A stretch of DNA of 64,000 bases. Source: Argopecten irradians. Lineage: Eukaryota > Mollusca > Bivalvia > Pectinida > Pectinidae. Positions 2,423 through 31,932 of the stretch are shown here, in pieces. Numbering within the stretch: the stretch's first letter is position 1; each line of letters starts with the position of its first letter. The notes beneath the pieces were generated by a model that ran no database searches, was not told the DNA's origin, and worked only from the letters and a program-made list of their open reading frames with translations. The stretch spans positions 36,719,882-36,783,881 of the forward strand of contig NC_091145.1 of the NCBI RefSeq assembly GCF_041381155.1, given 5' to 3'. The position numbers and the translations under genes are program-made.

Positions 2423-3581
2423 ATTTATCTGTTTGTTTCATGAACTCCATTGTGTTATTGTTTGTTTAAGTGTATTCTTTCTCATGGGGATACGCATTTA
2501 ATTTGTTTACATCAAAACACTACTTTACCATGCAATCATGACATAATATGTCACTTTTTTGGACGTTGTTTTTCAATCAAGGCGTTTTCCTTGATATTTA
2601 ATGTTATATTGTGTTATTTTGAGATTAAATACTTTCACATCTTTTAATGATTCTTGCGTTATGTGTTCAAACCGGCATGAACAGTGATTGGGAAAATAAC
2701 TTTGTACTTACATTAAGTGACTCTAAAGGAGTGACGTAGTCATGTAGGTGACGTTGGCACTGATACAAAAATGACACAAAACAAACATCTTTATCGGCCA
2801 CATTTATTATGATATAATAAATAGTTAGGATTAAGTTATAAATATAATAACAATTAACAAAATATTGGTAGCACATATATAAGTACATCAAGCTATTCTG
2901 TTGATAGCATGTCCGAAGATAACATGAATTAAATTACTTACCATAAGTGGGTTTTTTAAAGGGAAAATGATAATCATAGATTTTTAAAATGACAAAATAC
3001 AAATAAAATAATGTCTTCGCAGTTTGTTATTGGCTTATATTATGAAAGTTCGATGTTATGCTATCTAGATTATTATTCAATGTCGCATGCACGAAAACTT
3101 GATTTTGATTCATATCAACTTTTACATATGCTCGCGCTAATTGTTTATCTAAACATTAACAAGTCTATATAAATAATTTAAACACAAACTAAAATGTAGA
3201 TAAAAATTAACTACTAATAGTAGTATTAATGATTTATCATACGATAGGAATCCAATGTTCCTTTCAAATGTTGACAGAACAGTTAAATGTTGACTATACT
3301 GTTGTGGAATATGGTTGTTATACATAATTAAATAAAAACAAACAAACAAAAACCCAATGATGATGTTATTCGAAAATACCTGTACACAAATCAGTACTGG
3401 GTAATTTCACATCCATGTACAAGGTGATTTGATGTTTGACTGTTTTGAGGAGCTGACAAACTAAGTAATACTAAAATCCTTTTGGATTACCAGAATACCG
3501 TAGTAATTTTAATTGAAGACTGTGGGAAAATCCACAAATAGCATGCATAATGCATGCATGATAATTTTGTCTCAATATCGT
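2423..3581. other. Convergent intergenic region and 3' UTRs
   Basis: AT-rich DNA between the stop of the F-box gene (+) and the stop of the EF-hand gene (-). It should contain both 3' UTRs. On the minus strand possible poly(A) signals are ATTAAA at 3513-3508 and AATAAA at 2807-2802. No further coding exon is recognisable. Confidence 0.5.
2624..2629 (+). terminator. Possible polyadenylation signal of the F-box gene
   Basis: ATTAAA about 200 bases after the F-box stop codon. It is the common variant of AATAAA, and the distance gives a normal short 3' UTR. No transcript evidence is available. Confidence 0.35.
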
Positions 3582-6500
3582 TTACGTGACGTGTATTTCT
3601 GTATACATAGCACTGTCATTGCCTTTTTCATCTCCAGTGTATTGATGCTCGTTGTATCTATCGTCGCCCCTCTCATCGCCGTTATGGGGATGTTCGTTGT
3701 ATCTGTCATCGTATGATTCGTCTGTATCATCTGACGCACTTTCTAGATTGTGGTTTTCTTCTCCGATGATCCAGGGAGCGTCATTGAACTCTTTATTGGA
3801 TAGACGACCATCACCTAAAAATGTTATATAAGGTTAAGCACGAAATCTCCCCAGCATACCTAAAATATCTCAGTTTTAACTAACCGCACTCAAAACTACA
3901 ATGTTAGACACACAAATGCTATTCTTCCTATCTTGTCTAGAAAGTCTTTCTATCATGAATCATTCTTAAAAAAAAAAAAAAAAACAATCAGAGACTGGAA
4001 TAACTTGCCTGAATCACTTATAAGCAGTTCCACACTTACATCTTTCTCTCGATGATTATCAAATTTATCAACCCCACAGTCTACCCCCTTATTTACATAG
4101 GGCACGGGAAAGGTAAAATAAATCATTCCAGAATTAAACGGACATGAACATAAATAAACCATGTAAATTTGAGTAAAATATATATTTAAGACGTGTCAGA
4201 TACCCAACTAAGTAATATATTTATATCAGTTATTGTGCAAATGTGTCAAATAAAATAATTATAATGCAAATTCCATCTTTCTGTATTTTCAACCGGCCCG
4301 GTGGATTTTTTTAAAGGGACATGAACATAAATTCAGTCATTCTAATTCTGTTACATAACCACAAAGCAAAACATGGCATAAATATGTTGTTTTGCATTCT
4401 TTATGAAGCATATAATGTAAAATATTGAAAAATTCGTCATTGTAAAGTATTTTAATTGAATCGTTGAATAGCAATACAATTAAGAAGGTATAATGTGTAC
4501 GCTGTACCAATATCCGAACCAAGATCACGTACATTAGGGTTCATGTAAAGGCTTTAAACAGTGATATTTTGCAAGCCTAAAACTCATTACTGTGCTGCAA
4601 TTGAACAGAACTAATTTCATTAATTGTTGGTATATACCCTGGCTAACTGTCAGTCTTACTGTTGATATGTAATTTGTGAAGCTGCTTGTAAAATTCAGTA
4701 AAATATGAGAAAAATGTATATTTCTGGAGAAGACATAGAACTCGTGTGAATTGCATTGATGGAACCAAATAATCATGCCATCGTGTTCAGTTGTGAATAT
4801 GCCAGGTACTCCAACAGTTTGTTTGGCAAAATCGGACCAGCAAATAGCGCAGGAGCCTATTGTAGTAAATGCAAATGGCTGCTATAAATGGCGGATCACA
4901 AATATCGCATATAAGAAGCCATCTCAATTGATACAAATGTTCTTATAGACACCATAAGGTACTCTGAACATGACAAGAAGACTCTTCACGAAAAAAATAG
5001 TTCAACCGATCTGTTTGGGGCGAAAAATGCAAATTTCCGGAAAGAGCCTCAAAGTCCATATTTTAACTATTTTTTTTCGTAAATAGTCTTCTTGTCATGT
5101 TTAGAGTACCTTATAGTTTATATAAGAGCATTTGTATCAATTAAAATGTCTTCTTATATACTATATTTGTGATCCGCCATTTAAAGCAGCCATTTGCATT
5201 TACAACAATAGGCTCCTGCGCTATTCGCTGGTCCGATTTTGCCAAACAAACTGTTGGAGTACCTGGCATAGTCACTACTGAACACGATAGCATGCTTATG
5301 TGGTGCCATCAATGCTATTCACACGAGTTCTATGTCTTCTCCAGAAATATACATTTTTCTCTTATTTTACTGAAATTTACAAGCAGCTTCACAAATAACA
5401 CACCCACAGTATTATTTTACTGAAATTTACAAGCAGCTTCACAAATAAAACACCCACAGTAAGACTGACAGTAAGCCAGAGTACATACCAACAATTAATG
5501 AAGTTAGTTTTGTTCAATTGCAGCACAGTAAGGAGTTATATGCTTGCAAAATATCACTGGTTAAAGCCTTTACATGAACCTTAAACAAATGGAATACATC
5601 ACCACTAATAAGGTAAACACACTACGATAAGAGCGATTTGAGTAGTTCTAGACAAAACTTACATTTCACCACCATGGGCTTTATGGCATATCTCAATGAA
5701 ACAAACTAATCTAATTTCCACTGGAACAGGTTTGTTTACGATATATGTGCAAATTTTAATGTTCTCTTAAACTGAATTGTCCCTTTAATGTATTTTACAA
5801 GTATATCAATGCATATAGAATATCTAATATCTTTTAAGATATCAACGTTATCTTCACTAGTACGTTTATTTCAGGTCATTCATTTATAAAAATTAAACAT
5901 AAAGAAAAGAAAACAAAAAGCACTTTAAATCAATTTTAAAGAAAGAAACCTCCAATGTCATGCTTTGCCTCAGCTCCGATTATCAGTTAGTGTAAACCTA
6001 TCCTCAGCAGATCTAGTACTGAATCTCACGATATACACCATGATACAATTTTTACAGTGGTTACAAGACCCTCCATACACATTGTATCACCTGCACATGT
6101 TGGATGAAATAGAATTTGTAAAATCTGTTTTGATCTAGGGGATTTTATTGACAAGAATAAATGCATGATGCATCTTGTTAATTTTTAACTATAGGAGTGA
6201 AAATAAACAGATGTTGTTTAAACGCATCCGATACTTTATACAGACTGTTAATATTAGATACTGTGAGGGTTTTTTCGCGCATACACAGTATTTCGCATCT
6301 TCGTTAGTTCAAACATAGTCACGGATACAGAAATTTGCGATCAATGATCTTACTGCCAATTGTGGTGTGCGATCAATGGATCTTATAGACAGTCGTGGTT
6401 CGCGATCAATGGATCTTACCGCCAATCGTGGTGCGCGATCAATGGATGTTACTGACAGTCGTGGTGTGCGATCAATGGATCTTACTGACAGTCGTAGTGT

Positions 6501-9500
6501 GCGATCAATGGATCTTACTGACAGTCGTGGTGTGCGATCAATGGATCTTACTGCCAATCGTGGTTCGCGATCAATGGATCTTACTGCCAATCGTGGTGTG
6601 CGATCAATGGATCTTACTGACAGTCGTAGTGTGCGATCAATGGATCTTACTGACAGTCGTGTGTGCGATCAATGGATCTTACTCAATGGATCTTACTGCC
6701 AGTCGTGGTGTGCGATCAATGGATCTTACAGCCAATTGTGGTGTGCGATCAATGGATCTTACTGACAGTCGTGGTTCGCGATCAATGGATCTTACTGCCA
6801 ATCGTGGTGTGCGATCAATGGATCTTACTGCCAATCGTGGTGTGCGATCAATGGATCTTACAGCCAATTGTGGTGTGCGATCAATGGATCTTACTGACAG
6901 TGGTTTGCGATCAATGGATCTTACTAACAGTCGTGGTGTGCGATCAATGGATCTTACTGACAGTCGTGGTTCGCGATTAATGGATCTTACTGACAGTCGT
7001 GGTGTGCGATCAATGGATCTTACTGACAGTCGTGGTTCGCAATCAATGAATCTTACAGCCAATTGTGGTGTGCGATCAATGGATCTTACTGACAGCCGTG
7101 GTTCGCGATCAATGGATCTTACTGACAGTCGTGGTTCGCGATCAATGGATCTTACTGCCAATCGTGGTGTGCGATCAATGGATCTTACTGACAGTCGTGG
7201 TTCGCGATCAATGGGTTTAACTGCCAATCGTGGTGTGCGATCAATGGATTTTACTGACATTCGTGGTGTGCAATCAATGGATCTTACTGCCAATCGTGGT
7301 TCGCGATCAATGGATCTTACTGACAGTCGTGGTTCGCGATCAATGGATCTTACTGCCAATCGTGGTGTGCGATCAATGGATCTTACAGCCAATCGTGGAG
7401 TGCGATCAATGGATCTTACTGACAGTCGTGGTGTGCGATCAATGGATCTTACTGACAGTCGTGGTGTGCGATCAATGGATCTTACTGACAGTCGTGGTGT
7501 GCGATCAATGGATCTTACTGACAGTCGTGGTTCGCGATCAATGGATCTTACTGCCAATCGTGGTGTGCGATCAACGGATCTTACTGGCAGTCGTGGTTCG
7601 CGATCAATGGATCTTACTGATAGTCGTGGTGTGCGATCAATGGATTTTACTGATAGTCGTGGTTCGCGATCAATGGATCTTACTGACAGTCGTGGTGTGC
7701 GATCAATGGGTCTTACTGACAGTCGTGGTTCGCGATCAATGGATCTTACTGCCAATCGTGGTGTGCGATCAATGGATCTTACTGACATTCGTGGTGTGCA
7801 ATCAATGGATCTTACTGCCAATCGTGGTTCGCGATCAATGGATCTTACTGACAGTCGTGGTGTGTGATCAATGGATCTTTCTGACAGTCATGGTTCGCGA
7901 TCAATGGATCTTACTGATAGTCGTGGTTCGCGATCAATGGATCTTACTGACAGGCGTGGTTCGCGATCAATGGATCTTACTGCCAATCGTGGTGTGCGAT
8001 CAATGGGTCTTACTGACAGTCGTGGTTCGCGATCAAAGGATCTTACTGCCAATCGTGGTGTGCGATCAATGGATCTTACTGCCAATCGTGGTGTGCGATC
8101 AATGGATCTTACTGACAGTCGTGGTGTGCAATCAATGGATCTTTCTGACAGTCATGATTCGCGATCAATGGATCTTACTGATAGTCGTGGTTCGCGATCA
8201 ATGGATTTTACTGACAGTCGTGGTTTGCGATCAATGGATCTTACTGACAGTCATGGTGTGCGATCAACGGATCTTACTGACAATCATGGTGTGCGATCAA
8301 TGGATCTTACTGACAATCATGGATTTATATTATCATTTTATACAATTATTTGCTACAAACTGTAATTGGCATTCGTGCTCTCTCACGAAATAACGCGAAA
8401 ATCTGATTTCCGTCTTTGCATATTACAGATTACCGTCATTTTCTCCGACAAGTATGACGTTACGCTCGCAAATACATGACGTCACAATCAATGCCTACGC
8501 ACAAGTGCAGATAGCTCTGTAATATGCAAATTCGGAATATTGTGAAAACAAAGTGGCTTACAGTAATATACCTAATTTCGTAGATATCTAACATAACCTT
8601 CCATTGAATAGATTTTGAAGTACTGTTTTACTGTATTTAAAATCAGCATTTAAAAAACTTAAATCAGCCCACCAATTGATATCCTTTCTTATGACACATG
8701 TAATCAAACTCTCGCCAGGTGTACATTTTGTCTGCAGGGACATTATAGTTTCGAATTAACTACTGTGCAATGTCTACGGAGATGTTATCGTCATGGGCTT
8801 TTAACATGATAACTGATTAATCTTTTATCGGACGAACACTATATCATATAACATTCATCTGTTTATATCTCTGCGGGAAGCTGACATGTTGTGATATATT
8901 ATCAATATAATTAAAGGTGCTTTATCATATTGTGTGCCTTCAACTCGAAACCGAGATTAGACATTATAACAGTTGAAGCTGAAAATTGTTTTAAGCTGGT
9001 GATTGTTTTTATGTAAGACAGAGCTGTCCCTGTTTCCATACAAATACTTATCCTAATCATGACGTTATGTAATAACCAGTGGTGTTTTATCATTGTTATC
9101 TGTTCCGGATAGTGATAGCTTCAGCTTTCAGATATGGCTGTGTGGATGTTTATTTAGTATAATCAGAGATTCAGAATGTATCTGGTCTAATGGGTATAAA
9201 TTGAAATAAATAAATAAAAACGTGCTTACATTTTATTTCTCCATAACAACATCATTATGCTATCCTTTTATCCAATAAATATCAAGCTACGTTGTGGTAA
9301 TTCAGGTTTTAGGTAAAGCTCATGCTATGGCACTAAGTACAAGTACCCTCGACTTAACACGTAAATCCAAATCACACCTATACATTTAACTTGGTTACAT
9401 ATATATCTAATGAAGCTTATCTAGACATGCCTACCAGACTACATACCGTCTATGTCTGAGGCATGTAGAGCCAATGCGGCGTTTTCCTGGGCCTGAGTGG

Positions 9501-10008
9501 CTACCATTAACTCCTCTAGGTCGATGTACCCATCCTTGTTGGTATCATACTGGCTAAAATTGGTCGGCATGGGCAGGGGTTCGAACTCCTCGACAACATA
9601 CAGCCCCTCCTGTTCCAGGTTGTCCAGGTCAATAGGTCTGTTTTCACGTAATACCCCGTCAGATGCAGTATCCGATTGTGTGTACCGACTGGAATCTGTT
9701 TTGTCGAACTCATTGTGTTTGATATCATTCTGTTTAGGGTCTAAATAAAGATCCTCAGTGAATTTAAATTCGTTCTTCAAATCGACTTGGTTAAGGTTTA
9801 AGTATCTTGTCCTTGAAGGATCTATGTCGACAGTAAATTTGTCACTGTATGTATCAGACTCTGTCCCTGATTTCTCCCTCAAATCTTCTTCCTTCTGTGC
9901 CCTCAGTTCCACAAAGAGGGGCGGAGGAGCCGTAACCTGCTGCACTGTCACAGACAATCCTAGTACTATACACACGACAACACAGCTTGGTGTGTTAGTG
10001 GTGGCCAT
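3582..10008 (-). CDS. Secreted two-EF-hand calcium-binding protein with duplicated acidic tail
   Basis: Two exons on the minus strand: 10008-9447 (start) and 3814-3582 (stop), giving 264 residues. The start chosen is the ATG at 10008, with A at -3 and G at +4; the open frame reaches further upstream but only to a GTG. Residues 1 to about 27 form a signal peptide (VVVCIVLGLSVTV core). The middle is acidic and rich in Asp, Ser and Thr. EF-hand loop 1 is near residues 155-166 (DTNKDGYIDLEE). Loop 2, near 185-196 (DIDGDGRLSNKE), is split by the phase-1 intron. Both loops have canonical oxygen ligands at positions 1, 3, 5, 9 and 12. The tail has two 15-residue repeats starting DDRYNEH. It probably binds calcium outside the cell or in the secretory pathway. 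The closest family is not recognised; mollusc shell-matrix or ER calcium-binding proteins are possible. The 5,632-bp intron holds several repeats. Confidence 0.8.
3830..4165 (+). mobile_element. Non-LTR retrotransposon (LINE) fragment, C-terminal end of reverse transcriptase ORF
   Basis: Translation gives the typical tail of CR1/Jockey-type LINE proteins: SPAYLKYLSVLTNR, then SRKSFYHESFL, then TIRDWNNLPESLI and LTSFS, comparable to the family pattern of a Tyr-Leu stretch, SFFP, WN-LP and a final F-K-L. The fragment is broken: an A-run near 3966-3983 shifts the frame, another shift lies at its start and stops follow. It sits in the intron of the EF-hand gene on the opposite strand, starting only about 15 bases from the acceptor of exon 2. 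Exact ends are uncertain. Confidence 0.6.
4311..5788. mobile_element. TTAA-bounded fold-back DNA transposon (MITE-like, piggyBac-type ends)
   Basis: The left end TTAAAGGGACA at 4311 and the right end TGTCCCTTTAA finishing at 5788 are inverted repeats that include TTAA, the target site duplication of piggyBac-like elements. The left end carries about 10 extra bases just inside the shared terminal sequence. No transposase is encoded, so it is non-autonomous. Inside lies a much longer palindrome, 4530-5582. The flanks between the termini and the palindrome do not look complementary, so this may be one element inserted into another. Confidence 0.6.
4530..5582. repeat. Long imperfect inverted repeat (about 0.5-kb arms)
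   Basis: The left arm runs from GGTTCATGTAAAGGCTTTAA near 4530 to about 5000. The right arm runs from about 5060 to 5582 and reads as its reverse complement with scattered mismatches. Matching landmarks include GTGATATTTTGCAAGC, GTTTGTTTGGCAAAATCGGA and CTCCTGCGCTATT, each seen once per arm. The right arm carries a tandem duplication of a 50-bp piece (5362-5411 and 5412-5460). The central spacer holds a smaller pairing around the AAGAAGACT segments. If transcribed it would fold into a very long hairpin. Confidence 0.8.
5789..6335. other. Intron sequence between fold-back element and minisatellite
   Basis: AT-rich intronic DNA of the EF-hand gene. No exon, RNA gene or clear repeat was seen. 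Confidence 0.5.
6336..8324. repeat. 33-bp minisatellite, about 60 copies
   Basis: Head-to-tail copies of a 33-bp unit of the form CGATCAATGGATCTTACTGA plus 13 further bases. Copies differ at two main places: GACAGTCGT or GCCAATCGT, and GGTGTGCGA or GGTTCGCGA. Irregular units occur near 6660-6690 (partial duplication) and 6900. Because 33 is divisible by three, long stretches stay open in several frames: plus-strand repeats of RSMDLTDSRGV and DQWILLTVVVC, and minus-strand repeats of VRSIDRTPRLS. Variants change amino acids in each of these frames, which argues against purifying selection on protein. It lies wholly inside the EF-hand gene intron. Confidence 0.97.
8325..9446. other. Remaining intron sequence upstream of the minisatellite
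   Basis: Intron of the EF-hand gene up to the donor of exon 1 at 9446-9445. Around 9195-9222 there is an AAATAAATAAATAAAA tail that resembles the 3' end of a retroposon, but no body is recognisable. Otherwise nothing is seen. Confidence 0.4.
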
Positions 10009-10488
10009 CCTGACTGTCGTTGTTGTAAATATCACAGAGACACCGAGTTAATACTCTATAGAAAATCCATCCTCTGTGAATGATTACATTGCATGATACA
10101 AACACCGATCCGTTTATTACGGATACACAACAACATTACGTAACATCCTAAAGGGAATCTCCAGCGGACCAATGTACGGCAGCGTGTACTGTATGGAAGC
10201 CTGACGTCTCTCGCGTGTTTGGCAGAACAGATTCCTTCATCTCACGTACATGCTACATCATACTCATGGTAGGTTGAGCAGTTGCCAACAACTGACATCC
10301 TCCAAAAACAACATAAGCTGGATACAAGGCATATCTACATATATATGTATATGTATACAAGTAAATTTAGTATAGACGTTCATATGTAGTAGTCAATAGC
10401 GATATTAAGTGGGCATATACATATAAAATATATAATTGATTTGTCGGCGTTTTGTATTTTTTTAGCAGTGTTAAATGTAGCATTCTGC

Positions 10489-10546
10489 GGGGGTTACTAT
10501 CACTAACGTTATATCAGTTGATATAACGTCAGTGATAGTAACCCCC
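10489..10546. repeat. 58-bp near-perfect palindrome
   Basis: The arms 10489-10516 and 10519-10546 pair with one mismatch. The left arm starts GGGGGTTACTATCACTAACG and the right arm ends GTCAGTGATAGTAACCCCC. The loop is only two bases. It could be a hairpin-type mobile-element remnant or a cruciform-forming site. Confidence 0.9.
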
Positions 10547-11377
10547 GGAGTATCGAAAATGACTGTATATGTGCTTTTGTTCGAGGGGGTTAACGTTTGC
10601 TGTATTGGTGGTCGTGTTTTGATAACCTATATACTTATTACTTATATATACCCCATAATGAAATGGAAAATATTACAATTAAAGTAACCTATATATTGTA
10701 TTATTGGTATTAATTGACAAATGCGAAAAAGTATCAAATCGCGAAATGTTGTCCCCGCAAAACTTTATAACAGAGAACGACAGAATGATTGTACTTGATA
10801 TGCAAATACATTCACCAAGTGATAAAATGTTCAGTTTGGGGTAATTTCCTGTTCCTTCCACCAAAATATTTTATTGTTAGTTGGTCGTGATGAGGTGAAA
10901 TTGATGTCAGATTGTAGACCATTTTGATGTCAGTTAAGATGTTTTCCTGATCTTCATATATCCGAAAAATTTATTAATATCACTAACTGAAAAAAATACA
11001 TGTATGCGAAAAGAAGGTTACAGCAACAGAATTCCTTATTAAGATATACCCTGATTTGTAGCATACACTATCTTTAAGAAATAATGCAAACATCCAACAA
11101 TGTTTCTAGCAGAAGTGATTTGCAATATTTTAGAAAGAAAATATTTCGATTGAATTACAATTTGAGATTGTCGTATACTTTTTGATATTCTAAAATATAG
11201 AAATACGGAATTATGGGTCTGTTAAATATAAATATATGTCTATTAATTTACGATTAAAAGTTGCTATGATCTACTCTTTGACTATGGGTTTTGGTTTTCT
11301 ATCTGTTTTTTCTCGTTCACAAGGAATGCAACGTTATGTATGAAATGCATCACTATATTAAATTTTAGCAACAAGTG

Positions 11378-28140: not shown

Positions 28141-29198
28141 TCCAACAATATCTAAATATATAGCGGATCAGCACAATCATAGCAAGATTTAGCAATTTTG
28201 AATTTTCGCAATCTTTTCAAGATATGCATGAATCAACCATATACAAATATTTATAACTAGATCACAGCGAGATCCCGCGAAATTGGGAAACTATCATCCC
28301 GGGGAAAATACCGGCTATACGGTATTCAAGTTCCTTCCAAAGTGACGTACATTTGGTTTTAAGAAAGACGAATATAGAAAACCACATCAATACGCTCTAT
28401 CTTTGAACTTGTGTCAGCATTAAGTTTTATATCATAATTACATGGACTACATCAACGAAAATCACTACAAAATAATGATAATATTCTGCGTATATCATTT
28501 TACATGTCTTGTTAAAATGATAATTGTGTTATATTGTGAAATTTTCTTGATTTTAAAAAGACAGAAATAGACGGGAAGAATATCGGATATCCAAGTATCA
28601 AACGATAATGAGTTGTTTTTGTACTTTTGCTATTATATATTGATATTTTCGTTATTTTTTACTGTTTAATGAAATAATTCGCCATTAGATAGCCACAAAT
28701 GTCTGAGAAACAGACATATAAATACATGTATGTCGATAATATGATTATTTAAGACCAACACATCAATAATGCTCCATTGAATTATCAAATATATAACAAA
28801 GTACAATTCCATTTTGATTAAACAGTTAATTAGTATATGAAGTTAAGGTCACGTGCGGGCTAGCCTACCCAAACAGGTCGGATGGTACCTACCTATCGAT
28901 TGACAGCAGTAATTGAATAGCAGTAGATTATGGCAGATCACTTATAATCGACGATTAGTAGCCATTGTTTAACTTTATGATTATAAGACAAGTTATTGCC
29001 ATAGCATGAGAACATCCACCAGATCTAACAATATCACATACATTAAAACTTGGAATCAGATATATTTATCATTGGAGGGCATTGCAGTGTTACACTAGGA
29101 GAATAATAAATGATGATCAGTTTTTTCGAGTGCAGTATTTTGCTTGGTCAGGTTGTCTTTTCAATTCGCTATGGACAAATAAGTTTCAAATGGCTCTT

Positions 29199-29439
29199 AA
29201 AGGTGACATTATATCGAGATTTTAAAAAGGTGACATTATATCGTGATTTTATAAAGGTGACATTATATCGTGATTTTATAAAGGTGACATTATATCGTGA
29301 TTTTATAAAGGTGACATTATATCGTGATTTTATAAAGGTGACATTATATCGTGATTTTATAAAGGTGACATTATATCGTGATTTTATAAAGGTGACATTA
29401 TATCGTGATTTTATAAAGGTGACATTATATCGTGATTTA
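29199..29439 (+). repeat. 27-bp minisatellite, nine copies
   Basis: Nine nearly identical units starting AAAGGTGACATTATATCGTG, 27 bases apart, the last cut short. Because 27 is a multiple of three, the array stays open and reads as repeats of KVTLYRDFI within a 118-codon frame (29110-29466). The uniformity is more likely recent expansion than coding constraint. Confidence 0.95.
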
Positions 29440-31305: not shown

Positions 31306-31866
31306 CTTATATGAATCTGTATTTTAGAACATATACAGGCTAGAGATAACACTTATATGAATCTATATTTTTAGTACATATACATGCTAGTGATAGCACT
31401 TATATAAATCTGTATTTTTAGTACATATACAGGCTAGTGATAACACTTATATGAATCTGTATTTTAGTACATATACAGGCTAGTGATAACACTTACATGA
31501 ATCTGTATTTTAGTACATATACAGGCTAGTGATAACACTTTATACAGGCTAGTGATAACACTTATATGAATCTGTATTTTAGTACATATACAGGCTAGTG
31601 ATAACACTTTATACAGGCTAGTGATAACACTTTATACAGGCTAGTGATAACACTTATATGAATCTGTATTTTAGTACATATACAGGCTAGTGATAACACT
31701 TATATGAATCTGTATTTTTAGTACATATACAGGCTAGTGATAACACTTTATACAGGCTAGTGATAACACTTATATGAATCTGTATTTTAGTACATATACA
31801 GGCTAGTGATAACACTTATATGAATCTGTATTTTTAGTACATATACAGGCTAATGATAACACTTTA
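31306..31866 (+). repeat. Composite 46/23-bp minisatellite
   Basis: Repeats of CTTATATGAATCTGTATTTT followed by AGTACATATACAGGCTAGTGATAACA (about 46 bp). Shortened 23-bp units, CTTTATACAGGCTAGTGATA plus ACA, are interspersed. The short unit looks like an internal deletion of the long one that was then amplified. Confidence 0.95.
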
Positions 31867-31932
31867 TAGACATAATCAACTAACTAGGGGAAGGTAGGGA
31901 GGAAGGACGAAAGGATAGAGAGGACAAAATGC

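What the first reader, a model, noticed from the sequence alone, without database searches (positions are those of the whole stretch)
6336..8324. Two-kilobase 33-bp minisatellite open for long stretches on both strands
About 60 copies of a 33-bp unit lie inside the intron of the secreted EF-hand gene. The plus strand has open frames of up to 490 codons in repeats of RSMDLTDSRGV or DQWILLTVVVC, and the minus strand one of 380 codons in VRSIDRTPRLS. Most likely the frames are a by-product of a unit length divisible by three. An unannotated repeat protein is still not excluded.
Basis: partly seen in the sequence, partly recalled or inferred. Interest (0 to 1): 0.7.

Follow-up and report, generated by a model that had tools for sequence, protein, structure and literature searches.

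The report
Minisatellite grown inside ancient MITE
A 2-kb run of about sixty 33-base repeats in a predicted gene intron looks like the swollen middle of an old, decayed transposon rather than a hidden protein gene, and the same middle segment appears to have swollen at other places in the genome too.

Summary
The array is real: 6336-8322, 33 bp x 59.9, with stop-free runs of 492 (+) and 402 (-) codons. The runs fit a by-product of a unit length divisible by three: 99.7% of shuffled units keep at least one open frame, none of the three open frames shows a synonymous excess, and spacings of 32 and 47 shift the frame.

A profile from 29 single-unit copies elsewhere matches both flanks (6270-6364, E 5e-17; 8292-8412, E 5e-19) and the units; 0 hits in 10 resampled windows. 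The far terminus lies at 8537-8565, beyond a palindromic insert. A core pattern has 471 matches in the 846-Mb genome against 19 for its control. Four more loci carry arrays of this core, with 34-, 31-, 30- and 35-bp units; one (L067) is weak. Flanks of four array copies are no more alike than those of single copies, which favours separate local births. MITE-born tandem repeats are already known (Xstir, miDNA4): a new member of a known kind.

The parts
6259..6335 (+). Left arm of the MITE-like element; the outer terminus (from about 6259, by eye TACTGTGAGG...) is degraded
   Evidence: Profile positions 16-109 match 6270-6364, E 5.2e-17; outer end by eye, start not fixed
6336..8322 (+). 33-bp tandem array, about 60 units, each corresponding to about positions 78-109 of the 224-position element
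   Evidence: TRF; 57 of the 59 window profile hits are units
8292..8412 (+). Last unit and right arm of the element up to about position 201
   Evidence: Profile positions 80-201, E 4.6e-19
8408..8537 (.). Palindromic element nested in the right arm
   Evidence: Arms 8408-8429 and 8516-8537; 8434-8540 matches many other places in the genome. The nesting is inferred from the element resuming behind it
8537..8565 (+). Right terminal inverted repeat of the element, beyond the insert
   Evidence: Local alignment score 19; best of 2000 control places 14
9447..10008 (-). Predicted exon 1 CDS of the secreted EF-hand gene
   Evidence: Pfam EF-hand
3582..3814 (-). Predicted exon 2 CDS, completing the second EF-hand loop

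Best explanation
The array is non-coding. An old, decayed, roughly 224-bp inverted-repeat element (a MITE, perhaps with a TA target) lies in what is predicted to be the first intron of a secreted EF-hand gene. Its centre (about positions 78-109) was duplicated and grew to about 60 copies, most likely by replication slippage followed by unequal exchange or conversion. The unit happens to be 33 bp, so frames stay open. A second palindromic element landed in its right arm. Shown by computation: the element and its dispersed copies, the match of both flanks and of the units to it, and the lack of a coding signal between units. Inferred: slippage and unequal exchange, that growth came after insertion, the TA target, the nesting, and the order of events.
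For: A profile from 29 single-unit copies (the window not among them; two of them, L046 and L048, look like copies of one duplicated locus) matches both flanks at E 5e-17 and 5e-19 and gives 57 further hits to units; 0 hits in 10 first-order resampled windows. The right terminus resumes at 8537-8565. Consensus termini are exact 25-bp inverted repeats. Core pattern: 471 matches against 19 for the control, 107 of them in the five arrays. One single copy used as query: 312 candidates, 40 scored, all 40 significant, one of them itself. Arrays of the same core at four more loci with 34-, 31-, 30- and 35-bp units. Synonymous changes at or below expectation in all three open frames. Open frames expected by chance.
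Against: No direct evidence of slippage: exact direct repeats of 4 bp or more around the core of the consensus were found only at offsets 34 and 42, not 33. Runs of identical units do not recur more than in order shuffles, although TRF scores a 99-bp period above 33. No target duplication beyond a possible TA in 19 copies. Only 1.3% of 5000 unit-order shuffles reach the minus-strand open run. The 492-aa frame hits Pfam RDM3_C at E 2.7e-14, above that family's cut-off; six periodic controls reached 2.5e-10 at best, with another family.
Confidence: 0.92

Rival explanations
1. The array encodes an unannotated repeat protein, on + or -, transcribed from within the intron.
For: Open runs of 492 and 402 codons; RDM3_C beta-solenoid hit at E 2.7e-14, stronger than in six periodic controls; the minus run exceeds 98.7% of unit-order shuffles.
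Against: Two frame-shifting spacings and no synonymous excess in the three open frames; open frames expected for a 33-bp unit; both flanks and the units belong to a non-coding repeat family; related arrays use units of 30, 31, 34 and 35 bp.
Confidence: 0.03
2. Array-bearing elements were themselves mobile: one amplified MITE subfamily spread the arrays, and the single-unit copies are collapsed ones.
For: Five loci carry core arrays; central repeats travel with elements in oyster Helentrons (PMC7492417, abstract).
Against: Flanks of four array copies (0.52-0.67 identity in six pairs) are no closer to each other than to single copies (mean 0.604, n=116) or than single copies to each other (0.61, n=406) (L067 was left out as too degraded). 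Unit borders differ between loci. 1 of 30 element loci read holds an array (L043).
Confidence: 0.1
3. The array is kept for a regulatory role in the EF-hand gene's intron (for example an enhancer or chromatin array).
For: Only its position in the predicted first intron.
Against: No Rfam match at E up to 0.1 in 3500-10200; dispersed decayed copies of the same element are common elsewhere. Not tested directly.
Confidence: 0.04

Closest known systems
miDNA4 (Xenopus tropicalis, Tc1/mariner MITE; Scalvenzi and Pollet, as told in PMC12628747 section 6 part 1 and passages of PMC9659126; original not read)
   Same: A MITE whose internal segment exists as a single monomer or as an array of variable copy number.
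   Different: There capture of a pre-existing tandem repeat is suggested, flanked by short direct repeats of 5 bp or more. Here one unit is the usual state among the loci read, and units of 30 to 35 bp with different borders occur at five loci. No sequence comparison was made.
Xstir tandem repeats (Xenopus MITE; Hikosaka and Kawahara, as told in PMC12628747 section 6 part 1; original not read)
   Same: [quoted passage not shown] repeats derived from the MITE's internal sequence.
   Different: The mechanism proposed there uses two neighbouring elements; within the window no second copy of this element was found. Sequences not compared.
Cg_HINE elements of Crassostrea gigas (non-autonomous Helentrons; PMC7492417, abstract and outline read)
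   Same: Tandem central repeats between conserved element ends.
   Different: Those are Helentrons. Here the consensus ends are exact 25-bp inverted repeats, and 1 of 30 loci read has an array.
BrickBuilt (minisatellite within a MITE, Porphyromonas gingivalis; PMC4596501, abstract and outline read)
   Same: A 23-bp minisatellite between leader and tail segments with small inverted ends.
   Different: Bacterial; forms found 19 times in one genome, always intergenic. Here the copies read mostly lack an array.
Alu-, B1- and LTR-derived mammalian minisatellites and the Haber and Louis short-repeat model (as told in passages of PMC6947457; originals not read)
   Same: A short internal segment of a transposon becomes a minisatellite.
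   Different: Source here is an inverted-repeat DNA element; no flanking short direct repeat at the unit's spacing was found in the consensus.

Membership tests
MITE | Terminal inverted repeats | tested here: met
   Consensus of 29 copies begins TACTGTAAACCACTTTATTTTCGCG and ends with its exact reverse complement. The window copy keeps a clear right end; its left end is degraded.
MITE | Short, with many dispersed copies | tested here: met
   224 profile positions. 471 core matches against 19 control; 362 lie outside the five arrays and two excluded loci and were not each checked. 40 of 40 scored matches to L059, itself included, of 312 candidates.
MITE | Target-site duplication | tested here: inconclusive
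   19 copies with recognisable ends (two of them, L046 and L048, probably one duplicated locus): no match beyond the terminal TA for lengths 1 to 9; length 9 was 0.345 against 0.302 shuffled, sd 0.035. A TA duplication fits but cannot be told from the repeat itself.
Tc1/mariner superfamily | TA target and an autonomous relative with the same ends | not tested
   Only the TA ends are compatible; no autonomous partner was searched for. The defining feature is recalled.
Helentron/Helitron with central tandem repeats | Central tandem repeats as a regular part of the element | tested here: not met
   1 of 30 element loci read has a core array (L043). In the other 29 TRF finds only short repeats of about two copies inside the element, and an 11/22-bp array overlapping the edge of L045. 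Helitron end structures were not tested.
Minisatellite | Head-to-tail units of roughly 10-60 bp (recalled range) | tested here: met
   33 bp x 59.9
Minisatellite | Length variation between individuals | not testable with these tools
   One assembly only
Protein-coding repeat gene | Frame kept through the array, and purifying selection between units | tested here: not met
   Frame-shifting spacings 32 and 47; synonymous distinct changes 6, 7 and 8 against 8.0, 8.6 and 9.8 expected in the three open frames

The most novel reading that the evidence does not exclude
The middle 30-35 bp of this decayed MITE family is an intrinsic seed for minisatellite birth: the same segment was amplified separately at five or more loci, with unit length set anew each time (30, 31, 33, 34, 35 bp), while the arms were not seen to amplify. 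The family would then be a natural replicate experiment on why some sequences start tandem repeats.
Probability: 0.35. Interest if true: 0.5.

Novelty: new member of a known kind. Interest (0 to 1): 0.3.

Why it matters
It makes a candidate hidden protein unlikely and puts a checked origin in its place. It also sets five arrays of different unit length, apparently born from the same transposon core, next to some hundreds of unamplified core copies in one genome. That is a ready comparison set for the question of how a minisatellite takes its first step from one copy to two.

Tried and rejected
Coding: set aside on substitution pattern, frame shifts and relatives. The RDM3_C hit of the 492-aa frame is read as a likely effect of periodicity: six controls (one reversed, five permuted within the 11-residue period) also gave hits, best E 2.5e-10 (Big_6), and one hit RDM3_C at 3.3e-5; none reached 2.7e-14, so it stays a weak point.

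Rfam: no match at E up to 0.1 in 3500-10200. The left flank as query finds only itself; the family appeared through the flanks of the second locus. L066 and L068 share AAGATTCTTACTGACA but have other flanks and were excluded. The generic tandem pattern (2745 matches, control 666) was listed only for its first 100 or so places, many of them in arrays with other units; it was not used for counting. The stricter patterns gave 35 matches against 3 controls (22 in the window, 6 in L065, 7 single places not examined) and 20 against 0 (window, L009, L065, L067, and the excluded L068). Both missed L043, so five arrays is a lower bound. A tandem pattern from the left arm gave 1 match against 1 control; one from the right arm gave 7 matches at one locus against 1 control, whose flanks have no significant profile match (best E 7.3).

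Block duplication in the array: the longest recurring run of identical units is 2, no more than in shuffles. Folding one copy (L059) as single-stranded DNA gave z -5.8, as inverted repeats would.

Bias: all four further arrays were found with queries that hold core sequence, so a preference for the core is only partly tested.

Full report
OBSERVATION. The array is real and at the stated place: 6336-8322, period 33, 59.9 copies. The core 17-mer occurs 60 times with up to 3 mismatches, against 0.23 expected. The longest stop-free runs are 492 codons on + and 402 on -. Of 58 spacings between 59 anchors, 55 are 33; the others are 32, 47 and 30, so two shift the frame. The 492-codon run therefore begins in one peptide register and continues in another.

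SURROUNDINGS. On the minus strand a predicted 264-aa protein, with a hydrophobic signal-like start (by eye), is split by a 5,632-bp intron (9446-3815) inside an EF-hand loop; Pfam EF-hand_5 E 1e-9. The array lies in that predicted intron. No RNA evidence is at hand. The window lies in an unnamed 845.8-Mb genome. I took it for a mollusc from general appearance; that was not tested.

ARE THE FRAMES MEANINGFUL? Shuffled consensus units keep 3.3 of 6 frames open on average and 99.7% keep at least one; 33-mers from elsewhere in the window keep 2.9, and 98.5% keep at least one. Neutral mutation of the consensus array at the observed rate, without indels, reaches 492 codons on + in 9.8% of 2000 runs and 402 on - in 14%. 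Shuffling the order of the real units reaches the + value in 15% and the - value in 1.3% of 5000 runs. Of 29 distinct substitutions in the 55 regular units, 6, 7 and 8 are synonymous in the three open frames, against 8.0, 8.6 and 9.8 expected; in the three closed frames 9, 7 and 11 against 7.1, 8.0 and 8.2. The 492-aa frame scores E 2.7e-14 against Pfam RDM3_C. Six periodic controls gave scattered hits up to 2.5e-10 but none as strong. I read this as an effect of periodicity, with that reservation.

ORIGIN. A search of the whole genome with three units found a second array, L009, 34-bp unit x 27.7, whose flanks resemble those of the window array. The L009 left flank with its first unit found ten other loci. 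The right flank with its last unit found sixteen other places, one of them the window. All ten left-flank loci and 8 of the 15 remaining right-flank places were fetched; 12 more loci came with the core pattern. Of these 30, one (L043) holds a core array and 29 hold one unit; L046 and L048 look like one duplicated locus. The 29 align over 224 positions, and the consensus ends are exact 25-bp inverted repeats. A profile built from them finds the window's left flank (6270-6364, E 5.2e-17), right flank (8292-8412, E 4.6e-19) and 57 unit hits at about positions 78-109. All 59 window hits lie in this element; there are none in 10 first-order resampled copies of the window without the array. The right terminus resumes at 8537-8565, behind a palindromic insert (score 19; best of 2000 control places 14). 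The left terminus is degraded.

FAMILY. The core pattern has 471 matches in the genome against 19 for the reversed control. Of these, 107 lie in the five arrays and 2 in excluded loci, leaving 362 that were not each checked. One full copy as query gives 312 candidates; 40 were scored and all 40, itself included, match. Arm identity between single copies averages 0.61 (406 pairs), so the family is old. No target duplication beyond a possible TA was seen in 19 copies.

REPEATED BIRTHS. Five copies carry core arrays: window 33 bp x 59.9, L009 34 x 27.7, L043 31 x 48.1, L065 30 x 19.3, L067 35 x 10.1. The best unit hits correspond to about positions 78-109, 86-121, 81-110, 80-110 and 86-120. L065's right arm matches only to position 143, and L067 is weak: its left arm with first unit matches at E 1.6e-4 and its right end was recognised by eye. 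Arm identity among the other four array copies (0.52-0.67, six pairs) does not exceed that to single copies (mean 0.604, 116 pairs). This favours separate local amplification over spread of an array-bearing element. Tandem forms of the left arm (1 match, 1 control) and right arm (one unrelated locus) were not found with the exact strings tried. All four further arrays were found with core-bearing queries, so the preference for the core is suggestive only.

MECHANISM. Most likely a first duplication by slippage or microhomology joining, then growth by slippage, unequal exchange and conversion (inferred). The 55 regular units fall into 30 distinct sequences that share recurrent variants, which fits. 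Recurring runs of units are not in excess, and no exact short direct repeat at the unit's spacing was found in the consensus; neither helps the reading.

KNOWN? MITE-internal tandem repeats are known: Xstir and miDNA4 in Xenopus (PMC12628747, passages and part 1 of section 6; PMC9659126, passages), BrickBuilt in a bacterium (PMC4596501, abstract and outline), satellite repeats within Helitron or Helentron elements of molluscs (PMC7492417, and PMC5139131, abstracts and outlines), and transposon-born minisatellites generally (PMC6947457, passages). Verdict: ordinary as a kind, with a testable question attached.

Noticed in passing
4534-5584: A long palindrome in the same predicted intron (arms of 341 nt at 92% and 172 nt at 91%), with a 50-bp direct duplication at 5362-5461.
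   Followed up: no
8408-8540: Palindromic element in the right arm of the MITE; part of it (8434-8540) has 1809 first-look candidates in the genome, 40 of them scored.
   Followed up: partly
10482-10553: A 35-nt inverted repeat with 2 nt between the arms, upstream of the EF-hand gene's predicted start.
   Followed up: no
29198-29438 and 31306-31868: Two further tandem arrays in the window: 27 bp x 8.9 at 98% matches, and a mixed 23/46/69-bp array.
   Followed up: no
L066 and L068: Two loci share a larger foldback-like element: 31-bp arrays on both sides, in opposite orientation, of a short 33-bp array that contains TTCTTACTGACA.
   Followed up: partly
L043 180-4374 and 7240-8501: Two other long arrays (39 bp x 107, and a 39/86-bp array) within the same 8.5 kb as the 31-bp MITE array.
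   Followed up: no
L043 array near its right end; L050, left of the element: A hairpin-like insert (GATACTCCAGGGGTTCC ... GGAGTATCGAGGATG) lies in the L043 array near its end, and a similar sequence lies beside the element in L050; seen by eye.
   Followed up: no
6389-7864 (+), 492-aa frame: Pfam RDM3_C beta-solenoid at E 2.7e-14, stronger than any hit of six periodic controls.
   Followed up: partly
whole genome: Tandem TTACTGACA at 25-40 bp spacing is in excess: 2745 matches against 666 for the reversed control; the listed places, all on contig C1, are largely in arrays with units unlike the MITE core.
   Followed up: partly
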